From assembly GCA_963920705.1 (NCBI GenBank), contig CAWUCO010000197.1:159317-223316 (forward strand): a DNA stretch of 64,000 nucleotides. Reading direction: 5' to 3'. The DNA is from Odiellus spinosus (taxonomy: Eukaryota; Arthropoda; Arachnida; Opiliones; Phalangiidae). The position numbers were made by a program, and so were the translations under genes. Under the pieces are notes generated by a model. It was not told the DNA's origin. It did not search any database and saw only the letters and a program-made list of their open reading frames with translations. Below, piece after piece: positions 14,701 through 59,663 of this stretch (the first letter of the stretch is position 1; each line of letters opens with the position of its first letter).

Positions 14701-14975
14701 ATGACTATTTTGATATTCTATGATTTCTTGAATTGGCCATATTTTTCTTGTTTTTCAACGGATTTTTGAAAACTCTTATTATTTAGACTGTCCATTAATT
14801 GCTCTTTCGAATGACTTTGGTTTTGTCTAAATTGCAAAATTGTGACAAATATAAAAATGGTTAAAATTAAGCAAAAACGCTTAAAAATCCAAGATTATTG
14901 GATTCAAATGGACACAAAACTTTTGATTTTTAAGCGATTTAGACAAAATTAAGACCACTCGAAAGACCAAATTTT
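11731..14975. repeat. Spacer of composite palindrome
   Basis: Satellite monomers, mainly F to about 13075, R to about 13465, F to about 14610, then R. Dyad A is inverted alone near 11950-12080, 12715-12850 and 14240-14385. Two unusual junctions (about 13070 and 14602) join H2 directly to H1 as CTAAATAACAAGAG; both carry CGAAAAAGC upstream and are 1532 bp apart, so they are copies of one event. Confidence 0.8.
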
Positions 14976-23392: not shown

Positions 23393-26300
23393 GCAAATAT
23401 TGGTCTATCTAAAAAACAAGAGTTTTGGAAAATCCGTTGAAAAACATGGAAAATATGGACAATTCAAAAAACATCTAATATCAAAAAGCGAATTTTGAAA
23501 ATCTGAAATTTGACTATTTTGATATTGTATGATTTCTTGAATTGGCCATATTTTTCTTGTTTTTCAACGGATTTTTGAAAACTATTGTTTTTTAGATAGA
23601 CCAAAATTTGGTCTTTCGAGTGGTCTTAATTTTGTCTAAATCGCTTAAAATTCAAAAGTTTTGTGTCCATTTGAATCCAATAATCTTGGATTTTTAAGCG
23701 TTTTTGCTTAATTTTAACCAATTTTATATTTGTCACAATTTTGCAATTTAGACAAAACCAAAGTCATTCGAAAGAGCAATTAATGGACAGTCTAAATAAT
23801 AAGAGTTTTCAAAAATCCGTTGAAAAACAAGAAAAATATGGCCAATTCAAGAAATCAAAGAATATCAAAATAGTCAAATTTCAGATTTTAAAAATTCGCT
23901 TTTTGATATTAGATGTTTTTTGAATTGTCCATATTTTCTATGTTTTTCAACGGATTTTCCAAAACTCTTGTTTTTTAGATAGACCAATATTTGCTCTTTC
24001 GAGTGGTCTTAATTTTTTCTAAATCGCTTAAAAATCAAAAGTTTTGTGTCCATTTGAATCCAATAATCTTGGATTTTTAAGCGTTTTTGCTTTATTTTAA
24101 AAAATTTTATATTTGTCACAATTTTGCAATTTAGACAAAACCAAAGTCATTCGAAAGAGCAATTAATGGACAGTCTAAATAATAAGAGTATTCAAAAATC
24201 CGTTGAAAAACAAGAAAAATATGGCCAATTCAAGAAATCATACAATATCAAAATAGTCAAATTTCAGATTATCAAAATTCGCTTTTTGATATTAGATGTT
24301 TTTTGAATTGTCCATATTTTCCATGTTTTTCAACGGATTTTCCAAAACTCTTGTTTTTTAGATAGACCAATATTTGCTCTTACGAGTGATCTTAATTTTG
24401 TCTAAATCGCTTAAAATCTAAAAGTTTTGTGTCCATTTGAATCCAATAATCTTGGATTTTTAAGCGTTTTTGCTTAATTTTAACCAATTTTATATTTGTC
24501 ACAATTTTGCAATTTAGACAAAACCAAAGTCATTCGAAAGAGCAATTAATGGACAGTTTAAATAATAAGAGTTTTCAAAAATCCGTTGAAAAACATGGAA
24601 AATATGGACAATTCAAAAAACATCTAATATCAAAAAGCGAATTTTGAAAATCTGAAATTTGACTATTTTGATATTGTATGATTTCTTGAATTGGCCATAT
24701 TTTTCTTGTTTTTCAACGGATTTTCCAAAACTATTGTTTTTTAGATAGACCAAAATTTGGTCTTTCGAGTGGTCTTAATTTTGTCTAAATCGCTTAAAAA
24801 TCAAAAGTTTTGTGTCCATTTGAATCCAATAATCTCGGATTTTTAAGCGTTTTTGCTTTATTTTAACCAATTTTATATTTGTCACAATTTTGCAATTTAG
24901 ACAAAACCAAAGTCATTCGAAAGAGCAATTAATGGACAGTTTAAATAAAAAGAGTTTTCAAAAATCCGTTGAAAAACATGCAAAATATGGACAATTCAAA
25001 AAACATCTAATATCTAAAAGCAAATTTTGAAAATCTGAGATTTGACTATTTTGATATTGTATGATTTCTTGAATTGGCCATATTTTTCTTGTTTTTCAAC
25101 GGATTTTCCAAAACTATTGTTTTTTAGATAGACCAATATTTGCTCTTTCGAGTGGTCTTAATTTTGTCTATATCGCTTAAAAATCAAAAGTTTTGTGTCC
25201 ATTTGAATCCAATAATCTCGGATTTTTAAGCGTTTTTGCTTTATTTTAACCAATTTTATATTTGTCACAATTTTGCAATTTAGACAAAACCAAAGTCATT
25301 CGAAAGAGCAATTAATGGACAGTCTAAATAATAAGAGTTTTCAAAAATCCGTTGAAAAACAAGAAAAATATGGCCAATTCAAGAAATCATAGAATATCAA
25401 AATAGTCAAATTTCAGATTTTCAAAATTCGCTTTTTGATATTAGATGTTTTTTGAATTGTCCATATTTTCCATGTTTTTCAACGGATTTTCCAAAACTCT
25501 TGTTTTTTAGATAGACCAATATTTGCTCTTTCGAGTGGTCTTAATTTTGTCTATATCGCTTAAAAATCAAAAGTTTTGTGTCCATTTGAATCCTATAATC
25601 TTGGATTTTTAAGCGTTTTTGCTTAATTTTAACCAATTTTATATCTGTCACAATTTTGCAATTTAGACAAAACCAAAGTCATTCGAAAGAGCAATTAATG
25701 GACAGTCTAAATAATAAGAGTTTTCAAAAATCCGTTGAAAAACAAGAAAAATATGGCCAATTCAAAAAAACATCTAATATCAAAAAGCGAATTTTTAAAA
25801 TCTGAAATTTGACTATTTTGATATTGTATGATTTCTTGAATTGGCCATATTTTTCTTGTTTTTCAACGGATTTTCCAAAACTATTGTTTTTTAGATAGAC
25901 CAAAATTTGGTCTTTCGAGTGGTCTTAATTTTGTCTAAATCGCTTAAAATTCAAAAGTTTTGTGTCCATTTGAATCCAATAATCTTGGATTTTTAAGCGT
26001 TTTTGCTTTATTTTAACCAATTTTATATTTGTCACAATTTTGCAATTTAGACAAAACCAAAGTCATTCGAAAGAGCAATTAATGGACAGTTTAAATAAAA
26101 AGAGTTTTCAAAAATCCGTTGAAAAACATGCAAAATATGGACAATTCAAAAAACATCTAATATCAAAAAGCAAATTTTGAAAATCTGAAATTTGACTATT
26201 TTGATATTGTATGATTTCTTGAATTGGCCATATTTTTCTTGTTTTTCAACGGATTTTCCAAAACTATTGTTTTTTAGATAGACCAATATTTGCTCTTTCG

Positions 26301-26679
26301 AGTGGTCTTAATTTTGTCTATATCGCTTAAAAATCAAAAGTTTTGTGTTCATTTGAATCCAATAATCTTGGATTTTTAAGCGTTTTTGCTTTATTTTAAC
26401 CAATTTTATATTTGTCACAATTTTGCAATTTAGACAAAACCAAAGTCATTCGAAAGAGCAATTAATGGACAGTCTAAATAATAAGAGTATTCAAAAATCC
26501 GTTGAAAAACAAGAAAAATATGGCCAATTCAAGAAATCATACAATATCAAAATAGTCAAATTTCAGATTTTCAAAATTCGCTTTTTGATATTAGATGTTT
26601 TTTGAATTGTCCATATTTTCCATGTTTTTCAACGGATTTTCCAAAACTCTTGTTTTTTAGATAGACCAATATTTGTTCT

Positions 26680-28595
26680 TACGAGTGATCTTAATTTTGT
26701 CTAAATCGCTTAAAATTTAAAAGTTTTGTGTCCATTTGAATCCAATAATCTTGGATTTTTAAGCGTTTTTGCTTAATTTTAACCAATTTTATATTTGTCA
26801 CAATTTTGCAATTTAGACAAAACCAAAGTCATTCGAAAGAGCAATTAATGGACAGTTTAAATAATAAGAGTTTTCAAAAATCCGTTGAAAAACATGGAAA
26901 ATATGGACAATTCAAAAAACATCTAATATCAAAAAGCGAATTTTGAAAATCTGAAATTTGACTATTTTGATATTGTATGATTTCTTGAATTGGCCATATT
27001 TTTCTTGTTTTTCAACGGATTTTCCAAAACTATTGTTTTTTAGATAGACCAAAATTTGGTCTTTCGAGTGGTCTTAATTTTGTCTAAATCGCTTAAAAAT
27101 CAAAAGTTTTGTGTCCATTTGAATCCAATAATCTCGGATTTTTAAGCGTTTTTGCTTTATTTTAACCAATTTTATATTTGTCACAATTTTGCAATTTAGA
27201 CAAAACCAAAGTCATTCGAAAGAGCAATTAATGGACAGTCTAAATAATAAGAGTTTTCAAAAATCCGTTGAAAAACAAGAAAAATATGGCCAATTCAAGA
27301 AATCATAGAATATCAAAATAGTCAAATTTCAGATTTTCAAAATTCGCTTTTTGATATTAGATGTTTTTTGAATTGTCCATATTTTCCATGTTTTTCAACG
27401 GATTTTCCAAAACTCTTGTTTTTTAGATAGACCAATATTTGCTCTTTCGAGTGGTCTTAATTTTGTCTATATCGCTTAAAAATCAAAAGTTTTGTGTCCA
27501 TTTGAATCCTATAATCTTGGATTTTTAAGCGTTTTTGCTTAATTTTAACCAATTTTATATCTGTCACAATTTTGCAATTTAGACAAAACCAAAGTCATTC
27601 GAAAGAGCAATTAATGGACAGTCTAAATAATAAGAGTTTTCAAAAATCCGTTGAAAAACAAGAAAAATATGGCCAATTCAAAAAAACATCTAATATCAAA
27701 AAGCGAATTTTTAAAATCTGAAATTTGACTATTTTGATATTGTATGATTTCTTGAATTGGCCATATTTTTCTTGTTTTTCAACGGATTTTCCAAAACTAT
27801 TGTTTTTTAGATAGACCAAAATTTGGTCTTTCGAGTGGTCTTAATTTTGTCTAAATCGCTTAAAATTCAAAAGTTTTGTGTCCATTTGAATCCAATAATC
27901 TTGGATTTTTAAGCGTTTTTGCTTTATTTTAACCAATTTTATATTTGTCACAATTTTGCAATTTAGACAAAACCAAAGTCATTCGAAAGAGCAATTAATG
28001 GACAGTTTAAATAAAAAGAGTTTTCAAAAATCCGTTGAAAAACATGCAAAATATGGACAATTCAAAAAACATCTAATATCAAAAAGCAAATTTTGAAAAT
28101 CTGAAATTTGACTATTTTGATATTGTATGATTTCTTGAATTGGCCATATTTTTCTTGTTTTTCAACGGATTTTCCAAAACTATTGTTTTTTAGATAGACC
28201 AATATTTGCTCTTTCGAGTGGTCTTAATTTTGTCTATATCGCTTAAAAATCAAAAGTTTTGTGTCCATTTGAATCCAATAATCTTGGATTTTTAAGCGTT
28301 TTTGCTTTATTTTAACCAATTTTATATTTGTCACAATTTTGCAATTTAGACAAAACCAAAGTCATTCGAAAGAGCAATTAATGGACAGTCTAAATAATAA
28401 GAGTATTCAAAAATCCGTTGAAAAACAAGAAAAATATGGCCAATTCAAGAAATCATACAATATCAAAATAGTCAAATTTCAGATTTTCAAAATTCGCTTT
28501 TTGATATTAGATGTTTTTTGAATTGTCCATATTTTCCATGTTTTTCAACGGATTTTCCAAAACTCTTGTTTTTTAGATAGACCAATATTTGCTCT
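26680..28595 (+). repeat. Five-monomer higher-order repeat (1916 bp), full a-b-c-d-e unit
   Basis: Bounded by successive CTTACGAGTGATC markers (type a). It holds type b near 27065, c near 27450, d near 27830 and e near 28210. The preceding interval, 24381-26679, is a six-monomer version (2299 bp) with chimeric b/d and e/b monomers near 24765 and 25150. Confidence 0.82.
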
Positions 28596-30894
28596 TACGA
28601 GTGATCTTAATTTTGTCTAAATCGCTTAAAATTTAAAAGTTTTGTGTCCATTTGAATCCAATAATCTTGGATTTTTAAGCGTTTTTGCTTAATTTTAACC
28701 AATTTTATATTTGTCACAATTTTGCAATTTAGACAAAACCAAAGTCATTCGAAAGAGCAATTAATGGACAGTCTAAATAATAAGAGTTTTCAAAAATCCG
28801 TTGAAAAACAAGAAAAATATGGCCAATTCAAGAAATCATAGAATATCAAAATAGTCAAATTTCAGATTTTCAAAATTCGCTTTTTGATATTAGATGTTTT
28901 TTGAATTGTCCATATTTTCCATGTTTTTCAACGGATTTTCCAAAACTCTTGTTTTTTAGATAGACCAATATTTGCTCTTTCGAGTGGTCTTAATTTTGTC
29001 TATATCGCTTAAAAATCAAAAGTTTTGTGTCCATTTGAATCCTATAATCTTGGATTTTTAAGCGTTTTTGCTTAATTTTAACCAATTTTATATCTGTCAC
29101 AATTTTGCAATTTAGACAAAACCAAAGTCATTCGAAAGAGCAATTAATGGACAGTCTAAATAATAAGAGTTTTCAAAAATCCGTTGAAAAACAAGAAAAA
29201 TATGGCCAATTCAAAAAAACATCTAATATCAAAAAGCGAATTTTTAAAATCTGAAATTTGACTATTTTGATATTGTATGATTTCTTGAATTGGCCATATT
29301 TTTCTTGTTTTTCAACGGATTTTCCAAAACTATTGTTTTTTAGATAGACCAAAATTTGGTCTTTCGAGTGGTCTTAATTTTGTCTAAATCGCTTAAAATT
29401 CAAAAGTTTTGTGTCCATTTGAATCCAATAATCTTGGATTTTTAAGCGTTTTTGCTTTATTTTAACCAATTTTATATTTGTCACAATTTTGCAATTTAGA
29501 CAAAACCAAAGTCATTCGAAAGAGCAATTAATGGACAGTTTAAATAAAAAGAGTTTTCAAAAATCCGTTGAAAAACATGCAAAATATGGACAATTCAAAA
29601 AACATCTAATATCAAAAAGCAAATTTTGAAAATCTGAAATTTGACTATTTTGATATTGTATGATTTCTTGAATTGGCCATATTTTTCTTGTTTTTCAACG
29701 GATTTTCCAAAACTATTGTTTTTTAGATAGACCAATATTTGCTCTTTCGAGTGGTCTTAATTTTGTCTATATCGCTTAAAAATCAAAAGTTTTGTGTCCA
29801 TTTGAATCCAATAATCTTGGATTTTTAAGCGTTTTTGCTTTATTTTAACCAATTTTATATTTGTCACAATTTTGCAATTTAGACAAAACCAAAGTCATTC
29901 GAAAGAGCAATTAATGGACAGTCTAAATAATAAGAGTATTCAAAAATCCGTTGAAAAACAAGAAAAATATGGCCAATTCAAGAAATCATACAATATCAAA
30001 ATAGTCAAATTTCAGATTTTCAAAATTCGCTTTTTGATATTAGATGTTTTTTGAATTGTCCATATTTTCCATGTTTTTCAACGGATTTTCCAAAACTCTT
30101 GTTTTTTAGATAGACCAATATTTGCTCTTTCGAGTGGTCTTAATTTTGTCTAAATCGCTTAAAATTCAAAAGTTTTGTGTCCATTTGAATCCAATAATCT
30201 TGGATTTTTAAGCGTTTTTGCTTTATTTTAACCAATTTTATATTTGTCACAATTTTGCAATTTAGACAAAACCAAAGTCATTCGAAAGAGCAATTAATGG
30301 ACAGTTTAAATAAAAAGAGTTTTCAAAAATCCGTTGAAAAACATGCAAAATATGGACAATTCAAAAAACATCTAATATCAAAAAGCAAATTTTGAAAATC
30401 TGAAATTTGACTATTTTGATATTGTATGATTTCTTGAATTGGCCATATTTTTCTTGTTTTTCAACGGATTTTCCAAAACTATTGTTTTTTAGATAGACCA
30501 ATATTTGCTCTTTCGAGTGGTCTTAATTTTGTCTATATCGCTTAAAAATCAAAAGTTTTGTGTCCATTTGAATCCAATAATCTTGGATTTTTAAGCGTTT
30601 TTGCTTTATTTTAACCAATTTTATATTTGTCACAATTTTGCAATTTAGACAAAACCAAAGTCATTCGAAAGAGCAATTAATGGACAGTCTAAATAATAAG
30701 AGTATTCAAAAATCCGTTGAAAAACAAGAAAAATATGGCCAATTCAAGAAATCATACAATATCAAAATAGTCAAATTTCAGATTTTCAAAATTCGCTTTT
30801 TGATATTAGATGTTTTTTGAATTGTCCATATTTTCCATGTTTTTCAACGGATTTTCCAAAACTCTTGTTTTTTAGATAGACCAATATTTGCTCT
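28596..30894 (+). repeat. Contracted HOR: a-c-d-e followed by d-e (2299 bp)
   Basis: The first monomer begins as type a (CTTACGAGTGATC) but ends with the dyad A of type b (CATAGAAT near 28840), so type b has been lost by an a/b fusion. Types c, d and e follow, then a second d-e pair near 30130-30800. The next unit (from 30895) again shows the a/b fusion, then c and d, so the contracted form was itself copied. Confidence 0.8.
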
Positions 30895-32424
30895 TACGAG
30901 TGATCTTAATTTTGTCTAAATCGCTTAAAATTTAAAAGTTTTGTGTCCATTTGAATCCAATAATCTTGGATTTTTAAGCGTTTTTGCTTAATTTTAACCA
31001 ATTTTATATTTGTCACAATTTTGCAATTTAGACAAAACCAAAGTCATTCGAAAGAGCAATTAATGGACAGTCTAAATAATAAGAGTTTTCAAAAATCCGT
31101 TGAAAAACAAGAAAAATATGGCCAATTCAAGAAATCATAGAATATCAAAATAGTCAAATTTCAGATTTTCAAAATTCGCTTTTTGATATTAGATGTTTTT
31201 TGAATTGTCCATATTTTCCATGTTTTTCAACGGATTTTCCAAAACTCTTGTTTTTTAGATAGACCAATATTTGCTCTTTCGAGTGGTCTTAATTTTGTCT
31301 ATATCGCTTAAAAATCAAAAGTTTTGTGTCCATTTGAATCCTATAATCTTGGATTTTTAAGCGTTTTTGCTTAATTTTAACCAATTTTATATCTGTCACA
31401 ATTTTGCAATTTAGACAAAACCAAAGTCATTCGAAAGAGCAATTAATGGACAGTCTAAATAATAAGAGTTTTCAAAAATCCGTTGAAAAACAAGAAAAAT
31501 ATGGCCAATTCAAAAAAACATCTAATATCAAAAAGCGAATTTTTAAAATCTGAAATTTGACTATTTTGATATTGTATGATTTCTTGAATTGGCCATATTT
31601 TTCTTGTTTTTCAACGGATTTTCCAAAACTATTGTTTTTTAGATAGACCAAAATTTGGTCTTTCGAGTGGTCTTAATTTTGTCTAAATCGCTTAAAATTC
31701 AAAAGTTTTGTGTCCATTTGAATCCAATAATCTTGGATTTTTAAGCGTTTTTGCTTTATTTTAACCAATTTTATATTTGTCACAATTTTGCAATTTAGAC
31801 AAAACCAAAGTCATTCGAAAGAGCAATTAATGGACAGTTTAAATAAAAAGAGTTTTCAAAAATCCGTTGAAAAACATGCAAAATATGGACAATTCAAAAA
31901 ACATCTAATATCAAAAAGCAAATTTTGAAAATCTGAAATTTGACTATTTTGATATTGTATGATTTCTTGAATTGGCCATATTTTTCTTGTTTTTCAACGG
32001 ATTTTCCAAAACTATTGTTTTTTAGATAGACCAAAATTTGGTCTTTCGAGTGGTCTTAATTTTGTCTAAATCGCTTAAAAATCAAAAGTTTTGTGTCCAT
32101 TTGAATCCAATAATCTTGGATTTTTAAGCGTTTTTGCTTTATTTTAACCAATTTTATATTTGTCCCAATTTTGCAATTTAGACAAAACCAAAGCCATTCG
32201 AAAGAGCAATTAATGGACAGTCTAAATAATAAGAGTTTTCAAAATCCGTTTGAAAAACAAGAAAAATATGGCCAATTCAAGAAATCATAGAATATCAAAA
32301 TAGTCAAATTTCAGATTTTCAAAATTCGCTTTTTGATATTAGATGTTTTTTGAATTGTCCATATTTTCCATGTTTTTCAACGCATTTTCCAAAACTATTG
32401 TTTTTTAGATAGACCAAAATTTGG

Positions 32425-35077
32425 TCTTTCGAGTGGTCTTAATTTTGTCTAAATCGCTTAAAATTCAAAAGTTTTGTGTCCATTTGAATCCAATAATCTT
32501 GGATTTTTAAGCGTGTTTGCTTAATTTGAACCAATTTTATATTTGTCACAATTTTGCAATTTAGACTAAACCAAAGTCATTCGAAAGAGCAATTAATGGA
32601 CAGTCTAAATAATAAGAGTTTTCAAAAATCCGTTGAAAAACAAGAAAAATATGGCCAATTCAAGAAATCATAGAATATCAAAATAGTCAAATTTCAGATT
32701 TTAAAAATTCGCTTTTTGATATTAGATGTTTTTTGAATTGTCCATATTTTCTATGTTTTTCAACGGATTTTCCAAAACTCTTGTTTTTTAGATAGACCAA
32801 TATTTGCTCTTTCGAATGACTTTGGTTTTGTCTAAATTGCAAAATTGTGACAAATATAAAATTGGTTAAAATTAAGCAAAAACGCTTAAAAATCCAAGAT
32901 TATTGGATTCAAATGGACACAAAACTTTTGAATTTTAAGCGATTTAGACAAAATTAAGACCACTCGAAAGAGCAAATATTGGTCTATCTAAAAAACAAGA
33001 GTTTTGGGAAAATCCGTTGAAAAACATGGAAAATATGGACAATTCAAAAAACATCTAATATCAAAAAGCGAATTTTGAAAATCTGAAATTTGACTATTTT
33101 GATATTGTATGATTTTTGAATTGGCCATATTTTTCTTGTTTTTCAACGGATTTTTGAAAACTATTGTTTTTTAGATAGACCAAAATTTGGTCTTTCGAGT
33201 GGTCTTAATTTTGTCTAAATCACTTAAAATTCAAAAGTTTTGTGTCCATTTGAATCCAATAATCTTGGATTTTTAAGCGTTTTTTCTTAATTTTAACCAA
33301 TTTTATATTTGTCACAATTTTGCAATTTAGACAAAACCAAAGTCATTCGAAAGAGCAAATAATGGACAGTTTAAATAATAAGAGTTTTCAAAAATCCGTT
33401 GAAAAACATGGAAAATATGGACAATTCAAAAAACATCTAATATCAAAAAGCGAATTTTTAAAATCTGAAATTTGACTATTTTGATATTCTATGATTTCTT
33501 GAATTGGCCATATTTTTCTTGTTTTTCAACGGATTTTTGAAAACTCTTATTATTTAGACTGTCCATTAATTGCTCTTTCGAATGACTTTGGTTTTGTCTA
33601 AATTGCAAAATTGTGACAAATATAAAATTGGTTAAAATTAAGCAAAAACGCTTAAAAATCCAAGATTATTGGATTCAAATGGACACAAAACTTTTGAATT
33701 TTAAGCGATTTAGACAAAATTAAGACCACTCGAAAGACCAAATTTTGGTCTATCTAAAAAACAATAGTTTTCAAAAATCCGTTGAAAAACAAGAAAAATA
33801 TGGCCAATTCAAGAAATCATACAATATCAAAATAGTCAAATTTCAGATTTTCAAAATTCGCTTTTTGATATTAGATGTTTTTTGAATTGTCCATATTTTC
33901 CATGTTTTTCAACGGATTTTCCAAAACTCTTGTTTTTTAGATAGACCAATATTTGCTCTTTCGAGTGGTCTTAATTTTGTCTAAATCGCTTAAAAATCAA
34001 AAGTTTTGTGTCCATTTGAATCCAATAATCTTGGATTTTTAAGCGTTTTTGCTTAATTTTAACCAATTTTATATTTGTCACAATTTTGCAATTTAGACAA
34101 AACCAAAGTCATTCGAAAGAGCAATTAATGGACAGTCTAAATAATAAGAGTTTCCAAAAATCCGTTGAAAAACAAGAGAAATAAGGCCAATTCAAGAAAT
34201 CATACAATATCAAAATAGTCAAATTTCAGATTTTCAAAATTCGCTTTTTGATATTAGATGTTTTTTGAATTATCCATATTTTCCATGTTTTTCAACGGAT
34301 TTTCCAAAACTCTTGTTTTTTAGATAGACCAATATTTGTTCTTTCGAGTGGTCTTAATTTTGTCTAAATCGCTTAAAAATCAAAAGTTTTGTGTCCATTT
34401 GAATCCAATAATCTTGGATTTTTAAGCGTTTTTGCTTAATTTTAACCAATTTTATATTTGTCACAATTTTGCAATTTAGACAAAACCAAAGTCATTCGAA
34501 AGAGCAATTAATGGACAGTTTAAATAATAAGAGTTTTCAAAAATCCGTTGAAAAACATGGAAAATATGGACAATTCAAGAAATCATAGAATATCAAAATA
34601 GTCAAATTTCAGATTTTAAAAATTCGCTTTTTGATATTAGATGTTTTTTGAATTGTCCATATTTTCCATGTTTTTCAACGGATTTTTGAAAACTTTTATT
34701 ATTTAAACTGTCCATTAATTGCTCTTTCGAATGACTTTGGTTTTGTCTAAATTGCAAAATTGTGACAAATATAAAATTGGTTAAAATTAAGCAAAAACGC
34801 TTAAAAATCCAAGATTATTGGATTCAAATGGACACAAAACTTTTGAATTTTAAGCGATTTAGACAAAATTAAGACCACTCGAAAGAGCAAATATTGGTGT
34901 ATCTAAAAAACAAGAGTTTTGGAAAATCCGTTGAAAAACATGGAAAATATGGACAATTCAAAAAACATCTAATATCAAAAAGCGAATTTTGAAAATCTGA
35001 AATTTGACTATTTTGATATTCTATGATTTCTTGAATTGGCCATATTTTTCTTGTTTTTCAACGGATTTTTGAAAACT
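32425..35077. repeat. Right arm (2653 bp) of long-spacer inverted repeat
   Basis: Reverse complement of 20740-23392. Outer and inner edges were set where flanking bases stop pairing (20739/35078 and 23393/32424). The junction inside H1/H2 at about 32810 is the mirror of the one at about 23005, so that junction existed before the arm was copied. Confidence 0.93.
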
Positions 35078-42008: not shown

Positions 42009-42044
42009 GAAAAATATGGCCAATTCAATTAAGCAAAAACGCTT
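42009..42044. repeat. Truncated-monomer junction, copy 2
   Basis: Same junction as near 40702, 1324 bp on, part of the tandem duplication. Confidence 0.88.
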
Positions 42045-48985: not shown

Positions 48986-50761
48986 AACGGATTTTCCAAA
49001 ACTCTTGTTTTTTAGATAGACCAATATTTGCTCTTTCGAGTGGTCTTAATTTTGTCTAAATCGCTTAAAAATCAAAAGTTTTGTGTCCATTTGAATCCAA
49101 TAATCTTGGATTTTTAAGCGTTTTTGCCTAATTTTAACCAATTTTATATTTGTCACAATTTTGCAATTTAGACAAAACCAAAGTCATTCGAAAGAGCAAT
49201 TAATGGACAGTCTAAATAATAAGAGTTTTCAAAAATCCGTTGAAAAACAAGAAAAATATGGCCAATTCAAAAAACATCTAATATCAAAAAGCGAATTTTT
49301 AAAATCTGAAATTTGACTATTTTGATATTGTATGATTTCTTGAATTGGCCATATTTTTCTTGTTTTTCAACGGATTTTTGAAAACTCTTATTATTTAGAC
49401 TGTCCATTAATTGCTCTTTCGAATGACTTTGGTTTTGTCTAAATTGGAAAATTGTGACAAATATAAAATTGGTTAAAATTAAGCAAAAACGCTTAAAAAT
49501 CCAAGATTATTGGATTCAAATGGACACAAAACTTTTGAATTTTAAGCGATTTAGACAAAATTAAGACCACTCGAAAGACCAAATTATGGTCTATCTAAAA
49601 AACAATAGTTTTGGAAAATCCGTTGAAAAACAAGAAAAATATGGCCAATTCAAGAAATCATACAATATCAAAATAGTTAAATTTCAGATTTTCAAAATTC
49701 GCTTTTTGATATTAGATGTTTTTTGAATTGTCCATATTTTCCATGTTTTTCAACGGATTTTTGAAAACTCTTATTATTTAAACTGTCCATTAATTGCTCT
49801 TTCGAATGACTTTGGTTTTGTCTAAATTGCAAAATTGTGACAAATATAAAATTGGTTAAAATTAAGCAAAAACGCTTAAAAATCCAAGATTATTGGATTC
49901 AAATGGACACAAAACTTTTGATTTTTAAGCGATTTAGACAATATTAAGACCACTCGAAAGAGCAAATATTGGTCTATCTAAAAAACAAGAGTTTTGGAAA
50001 ATCCGTTGAAAAACAGAAAATATGGACAATTCAAAAAACATCTAATATCAAAAAGCGAATTTTGAAAATCTGAAATTTGACTATTTTGATATTGTATGAT
50101 TTCTTGAATTGGACATATTTTTCTTGTTTTTCAACGGATTTTCCAAAACTATTGTTTTTTAGATAGACCAAAATATGGTCTTTCGAGTGGTCTTAATTTT
50201 GTCTAAATCGCTTAAAATTCAAAAGTTTTGTGTCCATTTGAATCCAATAATCTTGGATTTTTAAGCGTTTTTGCTTAATTTTAACCAATTTTATATTTGT
50301 CACAATTTTGCAATTTAGACAAAACCAAAGTCATTCGAAAGAGCAATTAATGGACAGTCTAAATAATAAGAGTTTTCAAAAATCTGTTGAAAAACAAGAA
50401 AAATATGGCCAATTCAAGAAATCATACAATATCAAAATAGTCAAATTTCAGATTTTAAAAATTCGCTTTTTGATATTAGATGTTTTTTGAATTGGACATA
50501 TTTTTCTTGTTTTTCAACGGATTTTTGAAAACTCTTATTATTTAGACTGTCCATTAATTGCTCTTTCGAATGACTTTGGTTTTGTCTAAATTGCAAAATT
50601 GTGACAAATATAAAATTGGTTAAAATTAAGCAAAAACGCTTAAAAATCCAAGATTATTGGATTCAAATGGACACAAAACTTTTGAATTTTAAGAGATTTA
50701 GACAAAATTAAGACCACTCGAAAGACCAAATTTTGGTCTATCTAAAAAAATATAGTTTTGG
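48986..50761. repeat. Satellite block before the large palindrome
   Basis: F to about 49275, R to about 50135 with dyad A flipped near 49620-49760, F to about 50490, then R. Rare forms include TTGGAAAATTGTG (about 49446, also near 59003 and 61306), AAAAACAGAAAATATGG (short by 3 bp, near 50015) and GGACATATTTTTC (about 50112 and 50495). Mirror similarity to the far side of the palindrome continues here but with many mismatches. Confidence 0.72.
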
Positions 50762-53700
50762 AAAATCCGTTGAAAAACAAGAAAAATATGGCCAATTCAA
50801 GAAATCATAGAATATCAAAATAGTCAAATTTCAGATTTTCAAAATTCGCTTTTGATATTAGATGTTTTTTGAATTGGCCATATTTTTCTTGTTTTTCAAC
50901 GGATTTTTGAAAACTCTTATTATTTAGACTGTCCATTAATTGCTCTTTCGAATGACTTTCGTTTTGTCTAAATTGCAAAATTGTGACAAATATAAAATTG
51001 GTTAAAATTAAGCAAAAACGCTTAAAAATCCAAGATTATTGGATTCAAATGGACACAAAACTTTTGAATTTTAAGCGATTTAGACAAAATTAAGACCACT
51101 CGAAAGAGCAAATATTGGTCTATCTAAAAAACAAGAGTTTTGGAAAATCCGTTGAAAAACATGGAAAATATGGACAATTCAAAAAACATCTAATATCAAA
51201 AAGCGAATTTTGAAAATCTGAAATTTGACTATTTTGATATTCTATGATTTCTTGAATTGGCCATATTTTTCTTGTTTTTCAACGGATTTTTGAAAACTCT
51301 TGTTTTTTAGATAGACCAATATTTGCTCTTTCGAGTGGTCTTAATTTTGTCTAAATCGCTTAAAATTCAAAAGTTTTGTGTCCATTTGAATCCAATAATC
51401 TTGGATTTTTAAGCGTTTTTGCTTAATGTTAACCAATTTTATATTTGTCACAATTTTGCAATTTAGACAAAACCAAAGTCATTCGAAAGAGCAATTAATG
51501 GACAGTCTAAATAATAAGAGTTTTCAAAAATCCGTTGAAAAACAAGAAAAATATGGCCAATTCAAGAAATCATACAATATCAAAATAGTCAAATTTCAGA
51601 TTTTAAAAATTCGCTTTTTGATATTAGATGTTTTTTGAATTGGCCATATTTTTCTTGTTTTTCAACGGATTTTTGAAAACTCTTATTATTTAGACTGTCC
51701 ATTAATTGCTCTTTCGAATGACTTTGGTTTTGTCTAAATTGCAAAATTGTGACAAATATAAAATTGGTTAAAATTAAGCAAAAACGCTTAAAAATCCAAG
51801 ATTATTGGATTCAAATGGACACAAAACTTTTGATTTTTAAGCGATTTAGACAAAATTAAGACCACTCGAAAGAGCAAATATTGGTCTATCTAAAAAACAA
51901 GAGTTTTGGAAAATCCGTTGAAAAACATTGAAAATATGGACAATTCAAAAAACATCTAATATCAAAAGCGAATTTTGAAAATCTGAAATTTGACTATTTT
52001 GATATTGTATGATTTCTTGAATTGGCCATATTTTTCTTGTTTTTCAACGGATTTTCCAAAACTATATTTTTTTAGATAGACCAAAATTTGGTCTTTCGAG
52101 TGGACTTAATTTTGTCTAAATCGCTTAAAATTCAAAAGTTTTGTGTCCATTTGAATCCAATAATCTTGGATTTTTAAGCGTTTTTGCTTAATTTTAACCA
52201 ATTTTATATTTGTCACAATTTTGCAATTTAGACAAAGCCAAAGTCATTCGAAAGAGCAATTAATGGACAGTCTAAATAATAAGAGTTTTCGAAAATCCGT
52301 TGAAAAACAAGAAAAATATGGCCAATTCAAAAAACATCTAATATCAAAAAGCGAATTTTTAAAATCTGAAATTTGACTATTTTGATATTGAATGATTTCT
52401 TGAATTGGCCATATTTTTCTTGTTTTTCAACGGATTTTTGAAAACTCTTATTATTAAGACTGTCCATTAATTGCTCTTTCGAATGACTTTGGTTTTGTCT
52501 AAATTGCAAAATTGTGACAAATATAAAATTGGTTAAAATTAAGCAAAAACGCTTAAAAATCCAAGATTATTGGATTCAAATGGACACAAAACTTTTGAAT
52601 TTTAAGCGATTTAGACAAAATTAAGACCACTCGAAAGACCAAATTTTGGTCTATCTAAAAAACAATAGTTTTCAAAAATCCGTTGAAAAACAAGAAAAAT
52701 ATGGCCAATTCAAGAAATCATAGAATATCAAAATAGTCAAATTTCAGATTTTCAAAATTCGCTTTTGATATTAGATGTTTTTTGAATTGGCCATATTTTT
52801 CTTGTTTTTCAACGGATTTTTGAAAACTCTTATTATTTAGACTGTCCATTAATTGCTCTTTCGAATGACTTTGGTTTTGTCTAAATTGCAAAATTGTGAC
52901 AAATATAAAATTGGTTAACATTAAGCAAAAACGCTTAAAAATCCAAGATTATTGGATTCAAATGGACACAAAACTTTTGAATTTTAAGCGATTTAGACAA
53001 AATTAAGACCACTCGAAAGAGCAAATATTGGTCTATCTAAAAAACAAGAGTTTTCAAAAATCCGTTGAAAAACAAGAAAAATATGGCCAATTCAAGAAAT
53101 CATAGAATATCAAAATAGTCAAATTTCAGATTTTCAAAATTCGCTTTTTGATATTAGATGTTTTTTGAATTGTCCATATTTTCCATGTTTTTCAACGGAT
53201 TTTCCAAAACTCTTGTTTTTTAGATAGACCAATATTTGCTCTTTCGAGTGGTCTTAATTTTGTCTAAATCGCTTAAAATTCAAAAGTTTTGTGTCCATTT
53301 GAATCCAATAATCTTGGATTTTTAAGCGTTTTTGCTTAATTTTAACCAATTTTATATTTGTCACAATTTTGCAATTTAGACAAAACGAAAGTCATTCGAA
53401 AGAGCAATTAATGGACAGTCTAAATAATAAGAGTTTTCAAAAATCCGTTGAAAAACAAGAAAAATATGGCCAATTCAAAAAACATCTAATATCAAAAGCG
53501 AATTTTGAAAATCTGAAATTTGACTATTTTGATATTCTATGATTTCTTGAATTGGCCATATTTTTCTTGTTTTTCAACGGATTTTTGAAAACTATTGTTT
53601 TTTAGATAGACCAAAATTTGGTCTTTCGAGTGGTCTTAATTTTGTCTAAATCGCTTAAAATTCAAAAGTTTTGTGTCCATTTGAATCCAATAATCTTGGA

Positions 53701-54254
53701 TTTTTAAGCGTTTTTGCTTAATTTTAACCAATTTTATATTTGTCACAATTTTGCAATTTAGACAAAACCAAAGTCATTCGAAAGAGCAATTAATGAACAG
53801 TTTAAATAATAAGAGTTTTCAAAAATCCGTTGAAAAACATGGAAAATATGGACAATTCAAAAAACATCTAATATCAAAAAGCGAATTTTGAAAATCTGAA
53901 ATTTGACTATTTTGATATTGTATGATTTCTTGAATTGGCCATATTTTTCTTGTTTTTCAACGGATTTTCCAAAACTATTGTTTTTTAGATAGACCAAAAT
54001 TTGGTCTTTCAAGTGGTCTTAATTTTGTCTAAATCGCTTAAAATTCAAAAGTTTTGTGTCCATTTGAATCCAATTTTCTTGGATTTTTAAGCGTTTTTGC
54101 TTAATTTTAACCAATTTTATATTTGTCACAATTTTGCAATTTAGACAAAACCAAAGTCATTCGAAAGAGCAATTAATTGACAGTCTTAATAATAAGAGTT
54201 TTCAAAAATCCGTTGAAAAACAAGAAAAATATGGCCAATTCAAGAAATCATACA
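50762..54254. repeat. Left arm (3493 bp) of the large palindrome
   Basis: Position p pairs with 109315-p. Exact mirror tracers include GACTTTCGTTTTG (50960) with CAAAACGAAAGTC (58355), and ACAAAACGAAAG (53387) with CTTTCGTTTTGT (55928). Further pairs: AACATTGAAAATATGG, AACTATATTTTTTTAG, GTGGACTTAATT, GACAAAGCCAAAG, TTTTCGAAAATCC, GATATTGAATG, ATTATTAAGACTG, TTAACATTAAGC, AATGAACAG, TTTCAAGTGG, CCAATTTTCTTGG and ATTGACAGTCTTAA, each with its complement on the other side. Confidence 0.95.
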
Positions 54255-55060
54255 TAATAGTCAAATTTCAGATTTTAAAAATTCGCTTTTTGATATTAGA
54301 TGTTTTTTGAATTGGCCATATTTTTCTTGTTTTTCAACGGATTTTTGAAAACTCTTATTATTTTGACTGTCCATTAATTGCTCTTTCGAATGACTTTGGT
54401 TTTGTCTAAATTGCAAAATTGTGACAAATATAAAATTGGTTAAAATTAAGCAAAAACGCTTAAAAATCCAAGATTATTGGATTCAAATGGACACAAAACT
54501 TTTGATTTTTAAGCGATTTAGACAAAATTAAGACCACTCGAAAGAGCAAATATTGGTCTATCTAAAAAACAAGAGTTTTGGAAAATCCGTTGAAAAACAT
54601 TGAAAATATGGACAATTCAAAAAACATCTAATATCAAAAGCGAATTTTGAAAATCTGAAATTTGACTATTTTGATATTGTATGATTTCTTGAATTGGCCA
54701 TATTTTTCTTGTTTTTCAACGGATTTTCCAAAACTATATTTTTTTAGATAGACCAAAATTTGGTCTTTCGAGTGGTCTTAATTTTGTCTAAATCGCTTAA
54801 AATTCAAAAGTTTTGTGTCCATTTGAATCCAATAATCTTGGATTTTTAAGCGTTTTTGCTTAATTTTAACCAATTTTATATTTGTCACAATTTTGCAATT
54901 TAGACAAAACCAAAGTCATTCGAAAGAGCAATTAATGGACAGTCTAAATAATAAGAGTTTTCGAAAATCCGTTGAAAAACAAGAAAAATATGGCCAATTC
55001 AAAAAACATCTAATATCAAAAAGCGAATTTTTAAAATCTGAAATTTGACTATTTTGATAT
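54255..55060. repeat. Centre (806 bp) of the large palindrome
   Basis: The left side has lost 6 bp (CATACATAATAG for CATACAATATCAAAATAG), which breaks the exact mirror. The rest still pairs imperfectly up to a dyad A near 54654, with differences such as TTTTGACTG versus TTTAGACTG and GAGCAAATATTGG versus GACCAAATTTTGG. The same 6-bp deletion recurs near 63813. Much of the centre, with its right flank to about 55180, resembles 51.9-52.5 kb in direct orientation. Confidence 0.85.
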
Positions 55061-58000
55061 TGTATGATTTCTTGAATTGGCCATATTTTTCTTGTTTTTC
55101 AACGGATTTTTGAAAACTCTTATTATTAAGACTGTCAATTAATTGCTCTTTCGAATGACTTTGGTTTTGTCTAAATTGCAAAATTGTGACAAATATAAAA
55201 TTGGTTAAAATTAAGCAAAAACGCTTAAAAATCCAAGAAAATTGGATTCAAATGGACACAAAACTTTTGAATTTTAAGCGATTTAGACAAAATTAAGACC
55301 ACTTGAAAGACCAAATTTTGGTCTATCTAAAAAACAATAGTTTTGGAAAATCCGTTGAAAAACAAGAAAAATATGGCCAATTCAAGAAATCATACAATAT
55401 CAAAATAGTCAAATTTCAGATTTTCAAAATTCGCTTTTTGATATTAGATGTTTTTTGAATTGTCCATATTTTCCATGTTTTTCAACGGATTTTTGAAAAC
55501 TCTTATTATTTAAACTGTTCATTAATTGCTCTTTCGAATGACTTTGGTTTTGTCTAAATTGCAAAATTGTGACAAATATAAAATTGGTTAAAATTAAGCA
55601 AAAACGCTTAAAAATCCAAGATTATTGGATTCAAATGGACACAAAACTTTTGAATTTTAAGCGATTTAGACAAAATTAAGACCACTCGAAAGACCAAATT
55701 TTGGTCTATCTAAAAAACAATAGTTTTCAAAAATCCGTTGAAAAACAAGAAAAATATGGCCAATTCAAGAAATCATAGAATATCAAAATAGTCAAATTTC
55801 AGATTTTCAAAATTCGCTTTTGATATTAGATGTTTTTTGAATTGGCCATATTTTTCTTGTTTTTCAACGGATTTTTGAAAACTCTTATTATTTAGACTGT
55901 CCATTAATTGCTCTTTCGAATGACTTTCGTTTTGTCTAAATTGCAAAATTGTGACAAATATAAAATTGGTTAAAATTAAGCAAAAACGCTTAAAAATCCA
56001 AGATTATTGGATTCAAATGGACACAAAACTTTTGAATTTTAAGCGATTTAGACAAAATTAAGACCACTCGAAAGAGCAAATATTGGTCTATCTAAAAAAC
56101 AAGAGTTTTGGAAAATCCGTTGAAAAACATGGAAAATATGGACAATTCAAAAAACATCTAATATCAAAAAGCGAATTTTGAAAATCTGAAATTTGACTAT
56201 TTTGATATTCTATGATTTCTTGAATTGGCCATATTTTTCTTGTTTTTCAACGGATTTTTGAAAACTCTTGTTTTTTAGATAGACCAATATTTGCTCTTTC
56301 GAGTGGTCTTAATTTTGTCTAAATCGCTTAAAATTCAAAAGTTTTGTGTCCATTTGAATCCAATAATCTTGGATTTTTAAGCGTTTTTGCTTAATGTTAA
56401 CCAATTTTATATTTGTCACAATTTTGCAATTTAGACAAAACCAAAGTCATTCGAAAGAGCAATTAATGGACAGTCTAAATAATAAGAGTTTTCAAAAATC
56501 CGTTGAAAAACAAGAAAAATATGGCCAATTCAAAAAACATCTAATATCAAAAGCGAATTTTGAAAATCTGAAATTTGACTATTTTGATATTCTATGATTT
56601 CTTGAATTGGCCATATTTTTCTTGTTTTTCAACGGATTTTTGAAAACTATTGTTTTTTAGATAGACCAAAATTTGGTCTTTCGAGTGGTCTTAATTTTGT
56701 CTAAATCGCTTAAAATTCAAAAGTTTTGTGTCCATTTGAATCCAATAATCTTGGATTTTTAAGCGTTTTTGCTTAATTTTAACCAATTTTATATTTGTCA
56801 CAATTTTGCAATTTAGACAAAACCAAAGTCATTCGAAAGAGCAATTAATGGACAGTCTTAATAATAAGAGTTTTCAAAAATCCGTTGAAAAACAAGAAAA
56901 ATATGGCCAATTCAAGAAATCATTCAATATCAAAATAGTCAAATTTCAGATTTTAAAAATTCGCTTTTTGATATTAGATGTTTTTTGAATTGGCCATATT
57001 TTTCTTGTTTTTCAACGGATTTTCGAAAACTCTTATTATTTAGACTGTCCATTAATTGCTCTTTCGAATGACTTTGGCTTTGTCTAAATTGCAAAATTGT
57101 GACAAATATAAAATTGGTTAAAATTAAGCAAAAACGCTTAAAAATCCAAGATTATTGGATTCAAATGGACACAAAACTTTTGAATTTTAAGCGATTTAGA
57201 CAAAATTAAGTCCACTCGAAAGACCAAATTTTGGTCTATCTAAAAAAATATAGTTTTGGAAAATCCGTTGAAAAACAAGAAAAATATGGCCAATTCAAGA
57301 AATCATACAATATCAAAATAGTCAAATTTCAGATTTTCAAAATTCGCTTTTGATATTAGATGTTTTTTGAATTGTCCATATTTTCAATGTTTTTCAACGG
57401 ATTTTCCAAAACTCTTGTTTTTTAGATAGACCAATATTTGCTCTTTCGAGTGGTCTTAATTTTGTCTAAATCGCTTAAAAATCAAAAGTTTTGTGTCCAT
57501 TTGAATCCAATAATCTTGGATTTTTAAGCGTTTTTGCTTAATTTTAACCAATTTTATATTTGTCACAATTTTGCAATTTAGACAAAACCAAAGTCATTCG
57601 AAAGAGCAATTAATGGACAGTCTAAATAATAAGAGTTTTCAAAAATCCGTTGAAAAACAAGAAAAATATGGCCAATTCAAAAAACATCTAATATCAAAAA
57701 GCGAATTTTTAAAATCTGAAATTTGACTATTTTGATATTGTATGATTTCTTGAATTGGCCATATTTTTCTTGATTTTCAACGGATTTTTGAAAACTCTTA
57801 TTATTTAGACTGTCCATTAATTGCTCTTTCGAATGACTTTGGTTTTGTCTAAATTGCAAAATTGTGACAAATATAAAATTGGTTAACATTAAGCAAAAAC
57901 GCTTAAAAATCCAAGATTATTGGATTCAAATGGACACAAAACTTTTGAATTTTAAGCGATTTAGACAAAATTAAGACCACTCGAAAGAGCAAATATTGGT

Positions 58001-58553
58001 CTATCTAAAAAACAAGAGTTTTCAAAAATCCGTTGAAAAACAAGAAAAATATGGCCAATTCAAGAAATCATAGAATATCAAAATAGTCAAATTTCAGATT
58101 TTCAAAATTCGCTTTTTGATATTAGATGTTTTTTGAATTGTCCATATTTTCCATGTTTTTCAACGGATTTTCCAAAACTCTTGTTTTTTAGATAGACCAA
58201 TATTTGCTCTTTCGAGTGGTCTTAATTTTGTCTAAATCGCTTAAAATTCAAAAGTTTTGTGTCCATTTGAATCCAATAATCTTGGATTTTTAAGCGTTTT
58301 TGCTTAATTTTAACCAATTTTATATTTGTCACAATTTTGCAATTTAGACAAAACGAAAGTCATTCGAAAGAGCAATTAATGGACAGTCTAAATAATAAGA
58401 GTTTTCAAAAATCCGTTGAAAAACAAGAAAAATATGGCCAATTCAAAAAACATCTAATATCAAAAGCGAATTTTGAAAATCTGAAATTTGACTATTTTGA
58501 TATTCTATGATTTCTTGAATTGGCCATATTTTTCTTGTTTTTCAACGGATTTT
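55061..58553. repeat. Right arm (3493 bp) of the large palindrome
   Basis: Reverse complement of 50762-54254. I found one clear difference in the stretches compared (CTTGATTTTCAACGG near 57773, where the mirror has the usual GAAAAACAAG). The arms are far more alike than neighbouring monomers are to each other, so the copy event was recent or the arms are kept alike by gene conversion. Confidence 0.95.
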
Positions 58554-59663
58554 TGAAAACTATTGTTTTTTAGATAGACCAAAATTTGGTCTTTCGAGTG
58601 GTCTTAATTTTGTCTAAATCGCTTAAAATTCAAAAGTTTTGTGTCCATTTGAATCCAATAATCTTGGATTTTTAAGCGTTTTTGCTTAATTTTAACCAAT
58701 TTTATATTTGTCACAATTTTGCAATTTAGACAAAACCAAAGTCATTCGAAAGAGCAATTAATGAACAGTTTAAATAATAAGAGTTTTCGAAAATCCGTTG
58801 AAAAACAAGAAAAATATGGCCAATTCAAAAAACATCTAATATCAAAAAGCGAATTTTTAAAATCTGAAATTTGACTATTTTGATATTGTATGATTTCTTG
58901 AATTGGCCATATTTTTCTTGTTTTTCAACGGATTTTTGAAAACTCTTATTATTTAGACTGTGCATTAATTGCTCTTTCGAATGACTTTGGTTTTGTCTAA
59001 ATTGGAAAATTGTGACAAATATAAAATTGGTTAAAATTAAGCAAAAACGCTTAAAAATCCAAGATTATTGGATTCAAATGGACACAAAACTTTTGAATTT
59101 TAAGCGATTTAGACAAAATTAAGACCACTCGAAAGACCAAATTTTGGTCTATCTAAAAAACAATAGTTTTGGAAAATCCGTTGAAAAACAAGAAAAATAT
59201 GGCCAATTCAAGAAATCATACAATATCAAAATAGTCAAATTTCAGATTTTCAAAATTCGCTTTTTGATATTAGATGTTTTTTGAATTGTCCATATTTTCC
59301 ATGTTTTTCAACGGATTTTTGAAAAATCTTATTATTTAAACTGTCCATTAATTGCTCTTTCGAATGACTTTGGTTTTGTCTAAATTGCAAAATTGTGACA
59401 AATATAAAATTGGTTAAAATTAAGCAAAAACGCTTAAAAATCCAAGATTATTGGATTCAAATGGACACAAAACTTTTGGTTTTTAAGCGATTTAGACAAT
59501 ATTAAGACCACTCGAAAGAGCAAATATTGGTCTATCTAAAAAACAAGAGTTTTGGAAAATCCGTTGAAAAACAAGAAAAATATGGCCAATTCAAGAAATC
59601 ATACAATATCAAAATAGTCAAATTTCAGATTTTAAAAATTCGCCTTTTGATATTAGATGTTTT

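What the first reader, a model, noticed from the sequence alone, without database searches (positions are those of the whole stretch)
50762..58553. A 7.8-kb palindrome of satellite DNA with near-identical 3.5-kb arms
More than a dozen rare variants sit at exact mirror positions (sum 109315), with only one mismatch noticed in the arms. Adjacent monomers differ far more. A recent fold-back duplication, or continuing arm-to-arm conversion, is required. Palindromes this long can extrude cruciforms and are prone to breakage.
Basis: seen in the sequence. Interest (0 to 1): 0.8.

Follow-up and report, generated by a model that had tools for sequence, protein, structure and literature searches.

The report
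Mirror-image repeats in scrambled satellite DNA
A 7.8-kb stretch of satellite DNA, probably from a beetle, really is a near-perfect mirror image in this assembly, and it sits in an array whose building blocks point left or right almost at random, which suggests that this repeat family is copied in both orientations.

Summary
Window 50762-54254 equals the reverse complement of 55061-58553 except at one base in 3,493; comparable blocks differ by a median 2.8%. Two further inverted zones lie in the window.
A pure fold-back is not the best reading: the 806-bp centre and the outer flanks continue the mirror in register, but only at ordinary monomer divergence. The 3.5-kb block fits recent homology-guided inverted copying (conversion or inverted insertion).
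The context is more surprising. The 383-bp unit is two alternating hairpin-like dyads, H and B, centres 191.5 bp apart. Direction switches at 162 of 330 steps here, against 19 of 205 in three other loci of the genome. Reversed junctions mostly share one linked haplotype in scrambled arrays, but not in ordered ones. Exact matches of 150 bp or more are nearly as often inverted (1479) as direct (1722); against this, longer matches lean to direct, and long inverted pairs were seen in only one of 12 other scrambled loci. It is an extreme variant of the "macro-dyad" satellites reported in Tribolium. Assembly error cannot be excluded without reads.

The parts
50762..54254 (+). left arm of the palindrome (L)
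   Evidence: 3,492 of 3,493 positions identical to the reverse complement of the right arm
55061..58553 (-). right arm (R = reverse complement of L); carries the derived base at 57773
   Evidence: the other three copies in the window and C104:2214 carry A at the equivalent site, only this copy carries T
54255..55060 (.). 806-bp centre: B, H, B plus parts of two H; in mirror register but at background divergence
   Evidence: 9 substitutions and a 6-bp indel in the inner 345 bp of arm; sequence read
49998..50761 (+). outer left flank, in mirror register with 58554-59319 at background divergence
   Evidence: 14 substitutions and a 2-bp indel
50762..51565 (+). nested repeat l1; inverted exact copy at 52782-53585, direct exact copy at 55730-56533, one-mismatch inverted copy at 57750-58553
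20740..23567 (+). left arm of a second inverted pair (partner 32250-35077), 99.79% over 2,828 bp, 8.7 kb apart
   Evidence: 2,596 bp of it exact
32250..35077 (-). right arm of the second inverted pair
23429..32663 (.). higher-order direct repeats between (and slightly overlapping) the arms of the second pair, lags 766-5748 bp; B elements from 23569 on all in one orientation
9772..17701 (.). third, older inverted zone: 9772-10810/16663-17701 and 10211-11684/15023-16496, offset by two units
50768..50901 (+). example H element (134 bp): quasi-palindrome, consensus 80% identical to its own reverse complement, predicted hairpin -45.4 kcal/mol (z -14.9)
50902..51149 (+). example B element (248 bp): quasi-palindrome, consensus 68% self-complementary, predicted hairpin -53 kcal/mol (z -10.0)
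50890..50907 (+). example of the 18-bp junction core (TGTTTTTCAACGGATTTT) shared by the main junction classes; the commonest recombinant junctions place their breakpoint here
   Evidence: junction haplotypes, sequence

Best explanation
The window lies in a multi-megabase, probably pericentromeric, satellite of a beetle-like genome. Its 383-bp unit is two alternating dyads (H, B) whose centres are evenly spaced, so any stretch can be copied in either orientation and still fit the array. SHOWN: the arms are near-identical, bounded on both sides by mirror-register sequence of ordinary divergence; other inverted and direct near-identical blocks occur; direction switches at half of the steps here but rarely in some other loci. 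INFERRED: (1) a few old recombinations in the 18-bp symmetric junction core made reversed junctions; (2) homologous exchange inside H and B, in both orientations, reassorted them; (3) the palindrome is a recent, larger case of (2): a broken or stalled strand copied about 3.5 kb from an inverted, homologous neighbour stretch and rejoined through homology at both ends (inverted gene conversion, SDSA/BIR-type copying, or in-register inverted insertion). Replacement and insertion cannot be told apart here.
For: Sharp step in divergence at both ends with in-register homology continuing. Register kept across switches: element-centre spacing median 191.5 bp; B-to-B spacing 382.9 across a switch (n=81) and 382.8 without (n=79). 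Exact matches of 150 bp or more in the window: 1722 direct, 1479 inverted; in 12 other scrambled loci together 1177 and 1049; in three ordered loci 334 and 52. Reversed junctions mostly share a linked haplotype in scrambled loci, but not in ordered ones; diagnostic sites follow the junction on their own side and not the other side. Contig C104:848-4490 holds the centre, l3' and l1 (up to 1,486 bp exact) and then the l2 segment in the other orientation, without the left arm.
Against: No reads were available, and the contig ends 5.4 kb beyond the right arm, so the palindrome rests on one assembly path. C104 can also be read as a direct crossover between l1 copies, with further events. Exact matches of 300 bp or more lean to direct: 109 versus 64 in the window, 185 versus 58 in 12 other scrambled loci together; inverted exact matches of 700 bp or more were seen in only one of those 12 (C71:290-310k, longest 1,168 bp), and C197:1-10k has 64 direct versus 2 inverted at 150 bp or more. 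By orientation pattern alone, inverted runs other than this palindrome are not in excess. So long inverted copying occurs, but recent or local copying is mostly direct. Why scrambled loci sit near a switch rate of 0.5 is not explained by a few founders.
Confidence: 0.66

Rival explanations
1. Simple fold-back duplication: a replication fork or broken end turned back at about 54.65 kb and copied the left side once.
For: Gives a recent mirror with a short central part in one step; the arms are nearly identical.
Against: The two B elements beside the central H should then be copies, yet the inner 345 bp of arm carries 9 substitutions and a 6-bp indel while the next 3.49 kb carries one substitution. 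The outer flanks also stay in mirror register at background identity, which a fold-back does not require. Re-diversification of only the centre would be needed.
Confidence: 0.15
2. Assembly or sequencing artefact (fold-back read, chimeric amplification, or wrong path in a repeat graph).
For: The array is very repetitive, the contig ends 5.4 kb after the right arm, and no reads were seen. Telomere-type TCAGG tracts in the same assembly also change strand over short distances.
Against: A fold-back read gives an exact mirror at its centre, not an 806-bp centre with typical monomer divergence. Two other inverted zones in the window have arms 8.7 kb and 3.3-5.9 kb apart with their own divergence. 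C104 independently holds the centre and right inner arm. The single arm difference is polarised by other copies.
Confidence: 0.13
3. In-place flipping of single hairpin elements (cruciform or small-inversion flip-flop, as in plastid hairpin loops, recalled) produces the scrambled orientations, and the palindrome is a by-product.
For: H and B are strong predicted hairpins and flanking junctions are inverted repeats of each other. Three discordant H pairs with matched flanks are near-identical (mean 0.25%).
Against: Where two B elements are identical but the neighbour H points differently (17 of 197 neighbour comparisons), that H is as different as background (mean 2.4% versus 0.7% for concordant neighbours). 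With both flanks matched, discordant B elements average 4.0% against 1.4% for concordant ones (74 and 226 pairs; H flanks are a weak filter because H varies little). The three discordant H pairs all involve the H at 35695; for one of them the stretch matches exactly over 479 bp in the other orientation, so the case is ambiguous.
Confidence: 0.1
4. Mirror symmetry is selected for (pericentromeric chromatin or centromere function, as proposed for Tribolium macro-dyads) rather than a by-product of how the array copies itself.
For: Veseljak et al. 2026 propose it for Tribolium (PMC13081366); in contig C6 the satellite occupies the sampled first 2.9 Mb.
Against: Direct near-identical blocks are more common than inverted ones at 300 bp and above; ordered arrays of the same satellite exist in the same genome. 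No CenH3 data.
Confidence: 0.1

Closest known systems
Macro-dyad symmetric satellite arrays of Tribolium madens, T. freemani and T. castaneum (Veseljak et al. 2026, PMC13081366; abstract, whole discussion and passages read)
   Same: Abundant satellite with kilobase-scale inverted blocks in very large regions; distinct, conserved sequence at sites of direction change; beetle (here inferred from the (TCAGG)n telomere-type repeat).
   Different: There, kilobase-long subarrays run in one direction and arrays mostly hold two of them. Here direction changes at about half of all half-unit steps, and the palindrome arms are themselves scrambled. No second intermingled satellite is seen in the window.
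Satellites with long intra-monomer dyads: Tribolium brevicornis (1061 bp, ~470-bp inverted segments) and Trichogramma brassicae (385 bp, 80-bp inverted repeats), both known here only from their citation in PMC13081366
   Same: Monomer built of long inverted segments; the Trichogramma unit is almost the same length.
   Different: Random element orientation is not mentioned in the passages I saw; the sequences could not be compared.
TCAST1a/TCAST1b and TCAST transposon-like elements of T. castaneum (PMC3411249, passages read)
   Same: Unit of similar size (362/377 bp), and dispersed elements with terminal inverted repeats that carry satellite units.
   Different: There the inverted ends are ~269 bp with an ACT target-site duplication; here they are ~1.75 kb, and the C1 copy has a 5-bp direct duplication at its ends.
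Arm-to-arm conversion in large palindromes such as those of sex chromosomes (recalled, no call)
   Same: Near-identical inverted arms with a less alike spacer.
   Different: Those arms are unique gene-bearing DNA; these are satellite arms inside a homologous array.

Membership tests
Macro-dyad symmetric satellite arrays (Tribolium type) | satellite array with kilobase-scale inverted blocks | tested here: met
   3.5-kb inverted arms and two further inverted zones
Macro-dyad symmetric satellite arrays (Tribolium type) | each subarray runs in one direction, mostly two subarrays per array | tested here: not met
   direction changes at 162 of 330 steps in the window; longest one-direction run 11 half-units. 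Three ordered loci elsewhere in the genome come closer (2 of 51, 5 of 51, 12 of 103)
Macro-dyad symmetric satellite arrays (Tribolium type) | conserved, distinct sequence at inversion sites | tested here: met
   pooled over 16 loci, h5-b3 (reversed) junctions carry the linked allele A in 223 of 274 (C 27, unread 24), h3-b3 (forward) junctions carry C in 349 of 374; in the three ordered loci all 9 reversed junctions of this kind carry C
Macro-dyad symmetric satellite arrays (Tribolium type) | major and minor satellites intermingled | tested here: not met
   the window is one satellite throughout; the rest of the genome was not tested for a second satellite
Macro-dyad symmetric satellite arrays (Tribolium type) | multi-megabase (peri)centromeric blocks | tested here: inconclusive
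   C6 is satellite in the five stretches read at its start, 0.6, 1.15, 1.87 and 2.92 Mb, not in the three at 3.5, 4.5 and 6.0 Mb; TCAGG repeats lie near its far end; no centromere data
Satellites with long intra-monomer dyads | long inverted segments inside the monomer | tested here: met
   H consensus 80% and B consensus 68% identical to own reverse complement; hairpin z-scores -14.9 and -10.0 for one example each
Satellites with long intra-monomer dyads | sequence homology to T. brevicornis or Trichogramma brassicae satellites | not testable with these tools
   no sequences of these satellites were available; six text probes from the window found no paper
Simple fold-back palindrome | identity continues to the turning point | tested here: not met
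   inner 345 bp at 2.6% plus a 6-bp indel versus 0.03% in the arms

The most novel reading that the evidence does not exclude
A satellite whose evenly spaced dyads make sequence polarity free: exchange works with little regard to orientation, so the array behaves like a freely reassorting population of junction alleles in which direction is random, and palindromes of many sizes are ordinary products of concerted evolution rather than rare accidents.
Probability: 0.42. Interest if true: 0.72.

Novelty: new variant of a known kind. Interest (0 to 1): 0.5.

Why it matters
Satellite arrays are usually treated as head-to-tail, and their homogenisation as acting in one orientation. Here the same genome holds ordered and scrambled arrays of one satellite, with marked junction haplotypes, so the rates of inverted and direct exchange could be measured directly. 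It offers a mechanistic, non-selective source for the palindromes and macro-dyads now being reported in beetle pericentromeres, and it warns that palindromes in such arrays need not be assembly errors.

Tried and rejected
Simple fold-back at the centre: not preferred because of the divergence step. In-place flips of single elements: tested twice and not supported; the H at 35695 that looked flipped is ambiguous, because the same stretch also matches exactly over 479 bp in the other orientation. Reading the near-equal junction counts (84/84/82/81) as four independent facts: rejected, since each element has one end of each kind and only one ratio is free. Reading similar same-strand and opposite-strand counts between the window and other scrambled loci (7257 and 7499 at 150 bp or more) as proof of inverted copying: rejected, since arrays without overall polarity give this anyway. 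Naming the species: not reached; the (TCAGG)n repeat points to Tenebrionoidea or Cleroidea beetles (PMC8233369, passages), but the control search for TTAGG did not complete. An allelic reading of C104 was considered; the long match ends at C104:4490, so it is undecided. Exact-pattern scans of viral and prokaryote contigs: 0 hits. Paper searches for satellites with mixed orientation (listings, titles and starts of abstracts only) showed the Tribolium macro-dyad paper as the one close match, which I opened; one search returned no paper. Text probes of window sequence found none; a 383-bp satellite search listed one plant paper that I did not open. PMC4316633 and PMC5844308 were seen as passages and gave nothing usable for homology. 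The Genome Research 2025 paper on T. freemani is not held. A local TRF run timed out, one script failed on file names (redone), and a blastn inside one search printed nothing and was replaced by exact matches.

Full report
CHECK OF THE OBSERVATION. The whole window is one AT-rich satellite (Tandem Repeats Finder: bases 1-63973, period 383, 166.5 copies; GC 26-27%). With mirror sum 109315, all positions of 50762-54254 pair with 55061-58553 except 51542/57773. In a gapped alignment the mirror extends to 49998-54599 versus 59319-54710 (4,610 columns, 99.33%), but the differences are not spread evenly: 14 substitutions and a 2-bp indel in the outer 764 bp, 1 substitution in the 3.49-kb core, 9 substitutions and a 6-bp indel in the inner 345 bp. 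Element by element, 17 of 18 arm elements are identical and the mean divergence is 0.04%; 2,536 sampled 18-element block pairs, orientation-normalised, give median 2.81% and minimum 0.33%. So the 3.5-kb arms are real in this assembly, sharply bounded, and far beyond background. The single difference is polarised: three other copies in the window and one on contig C104 carry A, only the outer right copy carries T.

IT IS NOT ALONE, BUT LONG INVERTED PAIRS ARE NOT EVERYWHERE. The second longest near-identical pair in the window is also inverted: 20740-23567 and 32250-35077 (2,828 bp, 99.79%), with direct higher-order repeats between the arms. A third inverted zone lies at 9.8-17.7 kb, split by a two-unit offset. 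Counting maximal exact matches in the window, direct versus inverted: 1722 versus 1479 at 150 bp or more; 109 versus 64 at 300 or more; 13 versus 7 at 700 or more. In 12 other scrambled loci together: 1177 versus 1049, 185 versus 58, 14 versus 4; in three ordered loci: 334 versus 52, 69 versus 0, 5 versus 0. The four inverted matches of 700 bp or more outside the window all lie in one locus, C71:290-310k (longest 1,168 bp), and one scrambled locus, C197:1-10k, has 64 direct and 2 inverted matches at 150 bp or more. By orientation pattern alone, the 24-element mirror run is the only inverted run above the shuffled maxima: 2 inverted runs of 12 or more against 2.2 expected, 8 direct against 3.8. 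Inverted copying is thus a regular part of the array's history, but recent or local copying is mostly direct.

ANATOMY OF THE UNIT. Each 383-bp unit consists of H (134 bp) and B (248 bp), both quasi-palindromes: the consensus of 166 H is 80% identical to its own reverse complement, that of 165 B 68%. As single DNA strands one H and one B from the left arm fold at -45.4 and -53.0 kcal/mol, z-scores -14.9 and -10.0; a second H gives -46 and -13.4. Centres of successive elements are 191.5 bp apart (median of 326), and B-to-B spacing is the same across a change of orientation (382.9, n=81) and without one (382.8, n=79). Median pairwise divergence after orienting is 2.2% for H and 3.2% for B.

SCRAMBLED DIRECTION. 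Orientation of neighbouring H and B is uncorrelated: of 331 junctions 84, 84, 82 and 81 fall in the four classes (only one ratio among these is free). Taking the order found in ordered loci as forward, and after dropping 5 of 336 elements that are truncated, direction changes at 162 of 330 steps in the window (0.49), with run lengths 1:77, 2:48, 3:17, 4:8 and 13 longer (a few steps span a dropped element). The number of switches among H and among B is that of random order (88 of 165 against 82.6 expected; 82 of 164 against 78.3). I read 15 other loci or composites of the same genome, chosen around hits of one search with a palindrome segment plus adjoining stretches: 12 have switch rates 0.35-0.58 and three are ordered, C132 (2 of 51), C261:2892k (5 of 51) and C261:1068-1088k (12 of 103). 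On contig C6 all hits of a 32-bp junction pattern listed from 736 to 73,620 are on one strand.

ORIGIN OF THE SWITCHES. Of 1,288 junctions in the 16 loci, two haplotypes make up most forward junctions, h5|GpTG|b5 (301) and h3|TmCC|b3 (276). The commonest reversed junctions are their recombinants, h5|GpCC|b3 (173) and h3|TmTG|b5 (156), which place the breakpoint in the shared 18-bp core TGTTTTTCAACGGATTTT. Recombinants in the short flanking intervals are h3|GpTG|b5 (63) with h5|TmCC|b3 (6), and h5|GpTG|b3 (55) with h3|TmCC|b5 (4). The remaining 254 junctions did not fit the motif or fall in rarer classes and are not interpreted. The uneven reciprocal pairs speak for few founding events and later spread. 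In the b3 end of B, reversed h5-b3 junctions carry a linked allele A in 223 of 274 (C in 27, unread 24), while forward h3-b3 junctions carry C in 349 of 374. All 9 h5-b3 junctions in the three ordered loci carry C. My reading is that an old founder junction spread through the scrambled arrays, while ordered arrays suffer fresh, independent reversals. In the window the diagnostic sites follow the junction on their own side of B and not the other side, so exchange inside elements reassorts junctions. In-place flipping of single elements is not supported: with identical B, discordant neighbouring H differ by 2.4% against 0.7% for concordant ones (17 and 180 comparisons); with both flanks matched, discordant B differ by 4.0% against 1.4% (74 and 226 pairs). 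Against this, 3 discordant H pairs with matched flanks are near-identical (75 concordant pairs), all involving the H at 35695, which for one partner also matches exactly over 479 bp in the other orientation.

A RELATIVE OF THE PALINDROME. Contig C104:848-4490 matches the palindrome region with few differences: 849-1515 to 54365-55031 (667 bp exact), 1532-3017 to 55048-56533 (1,486 exact), 2214-4370 to 50762-52918 (2,157 exact). Written in parts, the window reads l1 l2 l1' l3 S l3' l1 l2' l1', and C104 reads S l3' l1 l2 l1'(257 bp). C104 therefore lacks the left arm, and beyond l1 it has the 1.2-kb l2 in the other orientation. Either l2 was inverted between the l1/l1' repeats and the left arm was copied from the right, or C104 arose by crossover between direct l1 copies with more events. 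Whether C104 is an allele or a paralogue is unknown.

MECHANISM. The best-supported account is homology-guided copying of an inverted template over about 3.5 kb, with both ends resolved in homologous, in-register sequence. This explains the sharp step in divergence at both ends, the unchanged register and the non-identical centre. A plain fold-back would make the centre identical. Gene conversion of existing inverted arms and in-register inverted insertion are both allowed. Fragility and cruciform extrusion of the whole palindrome are inference only.

SETTING. The genome is 443 Mb in 286 contigs; the window is the last 64 kb of C197 (contig end confirmed). A 32-bp junction pattern occurs 59,657 times exactly, which at the density of the 254 kb read corresponds to roughly 23 Mb of satellite. 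(TCAGG)n lies near ends of C1, C3 and C6, whose lengths I know, and also on C2, C4 and C7 in a capped listing. This repeat is reported in Tenebrionoidea and Cleroidea beetles (PMC8233369, passages); the TTAGG control did not complete. C6 is satellite at the five stretches read between its start and 2.92 Mb and not at three between 3.5 and 6.0 Mb, as for a pericentromeric block.

COMPARISON WITH WHAT IS KNOWN. The closest published system is the macro-dyad organisation of Tribolium satellites (PMC13081366; abstract, whole discussion and passages read). The kilobase inverted blocks and conserved turning sites are shared; the one-direction subarrays and, in the window, the second satellite are not found. 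I therefore call it a new variant of a known kind, not a member. Searches for satellites with mixed orientation (listings only) showed nothing closer, in an open-access library that lacks most subscription journals.

LIMITS. No reads; one assembly; the other loci were picked around hits to one palindrome segment, which biases towards related arrays; the near-0.5 switch rate in scrambled loci remains unexplained, because exchange inside elements conserves junction counts.

Noticed in passing
L035-L042 (G000 C1:33019594-33024459; C5 about 18267.8-18272.7 kb; also C3:23306-23310 kb and C5:7089-7093 kb): Dispersed elements carry this satellite in ordered orientation that turns once in the middle. 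The C1 and C5:18.27-Mb copies have ~1.75-kb terminal inverted repeats (99.3-99.4% alike) and are 99.8% identical over 4.86 kb; the C1 copy has a 5-bp direct duplication CCTTC at its ends, while the terminal motif was not found exactly in the C5 copy. The C3 and C5:7.09-Mb stretches are 99.98% identical over the 4.2 kb read. They resemble the TCAST transposon-like elements of T. castaneum.
   Followed up: partly
window 8136-8285: Exact 74-bp tandem duplication (2.0 copies, 100%) inside one unit, breaking the H/B alternation.
   Followed up: no
window 40701-40846, 42025-42170, 44496-44641: Three truncated B elements (positions 103-248 only) next to a full B; the first two lie in a direct repeat with lag 1324 bp.
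   Followed up: no
window 23429-32663: About 9 kb of direct higher-order repeats in which B elements from 23569 on all point the same way while H still varies, lying between and slightly overlapping the arms of the second inverted pair: a palindrome loop that may have been amplified.
   Followed up: partly
G000 C1:104-413, C4:25324115-25324374, C6:24897734-24897928: Telomere-type TCAGG tracts change strand within about 50-70 bp; the C6 tract lies about 11 kb from the contig end (contig length). Could be biology or fold-back artefacts of the assembly.
   Followed up: no
window B elements, b3 end: B elements fall into two groups by which end of H they face on the 3' side, with diagnostic sites at alignment columns 166, 206, 212 and 233.
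   Followed up: yes
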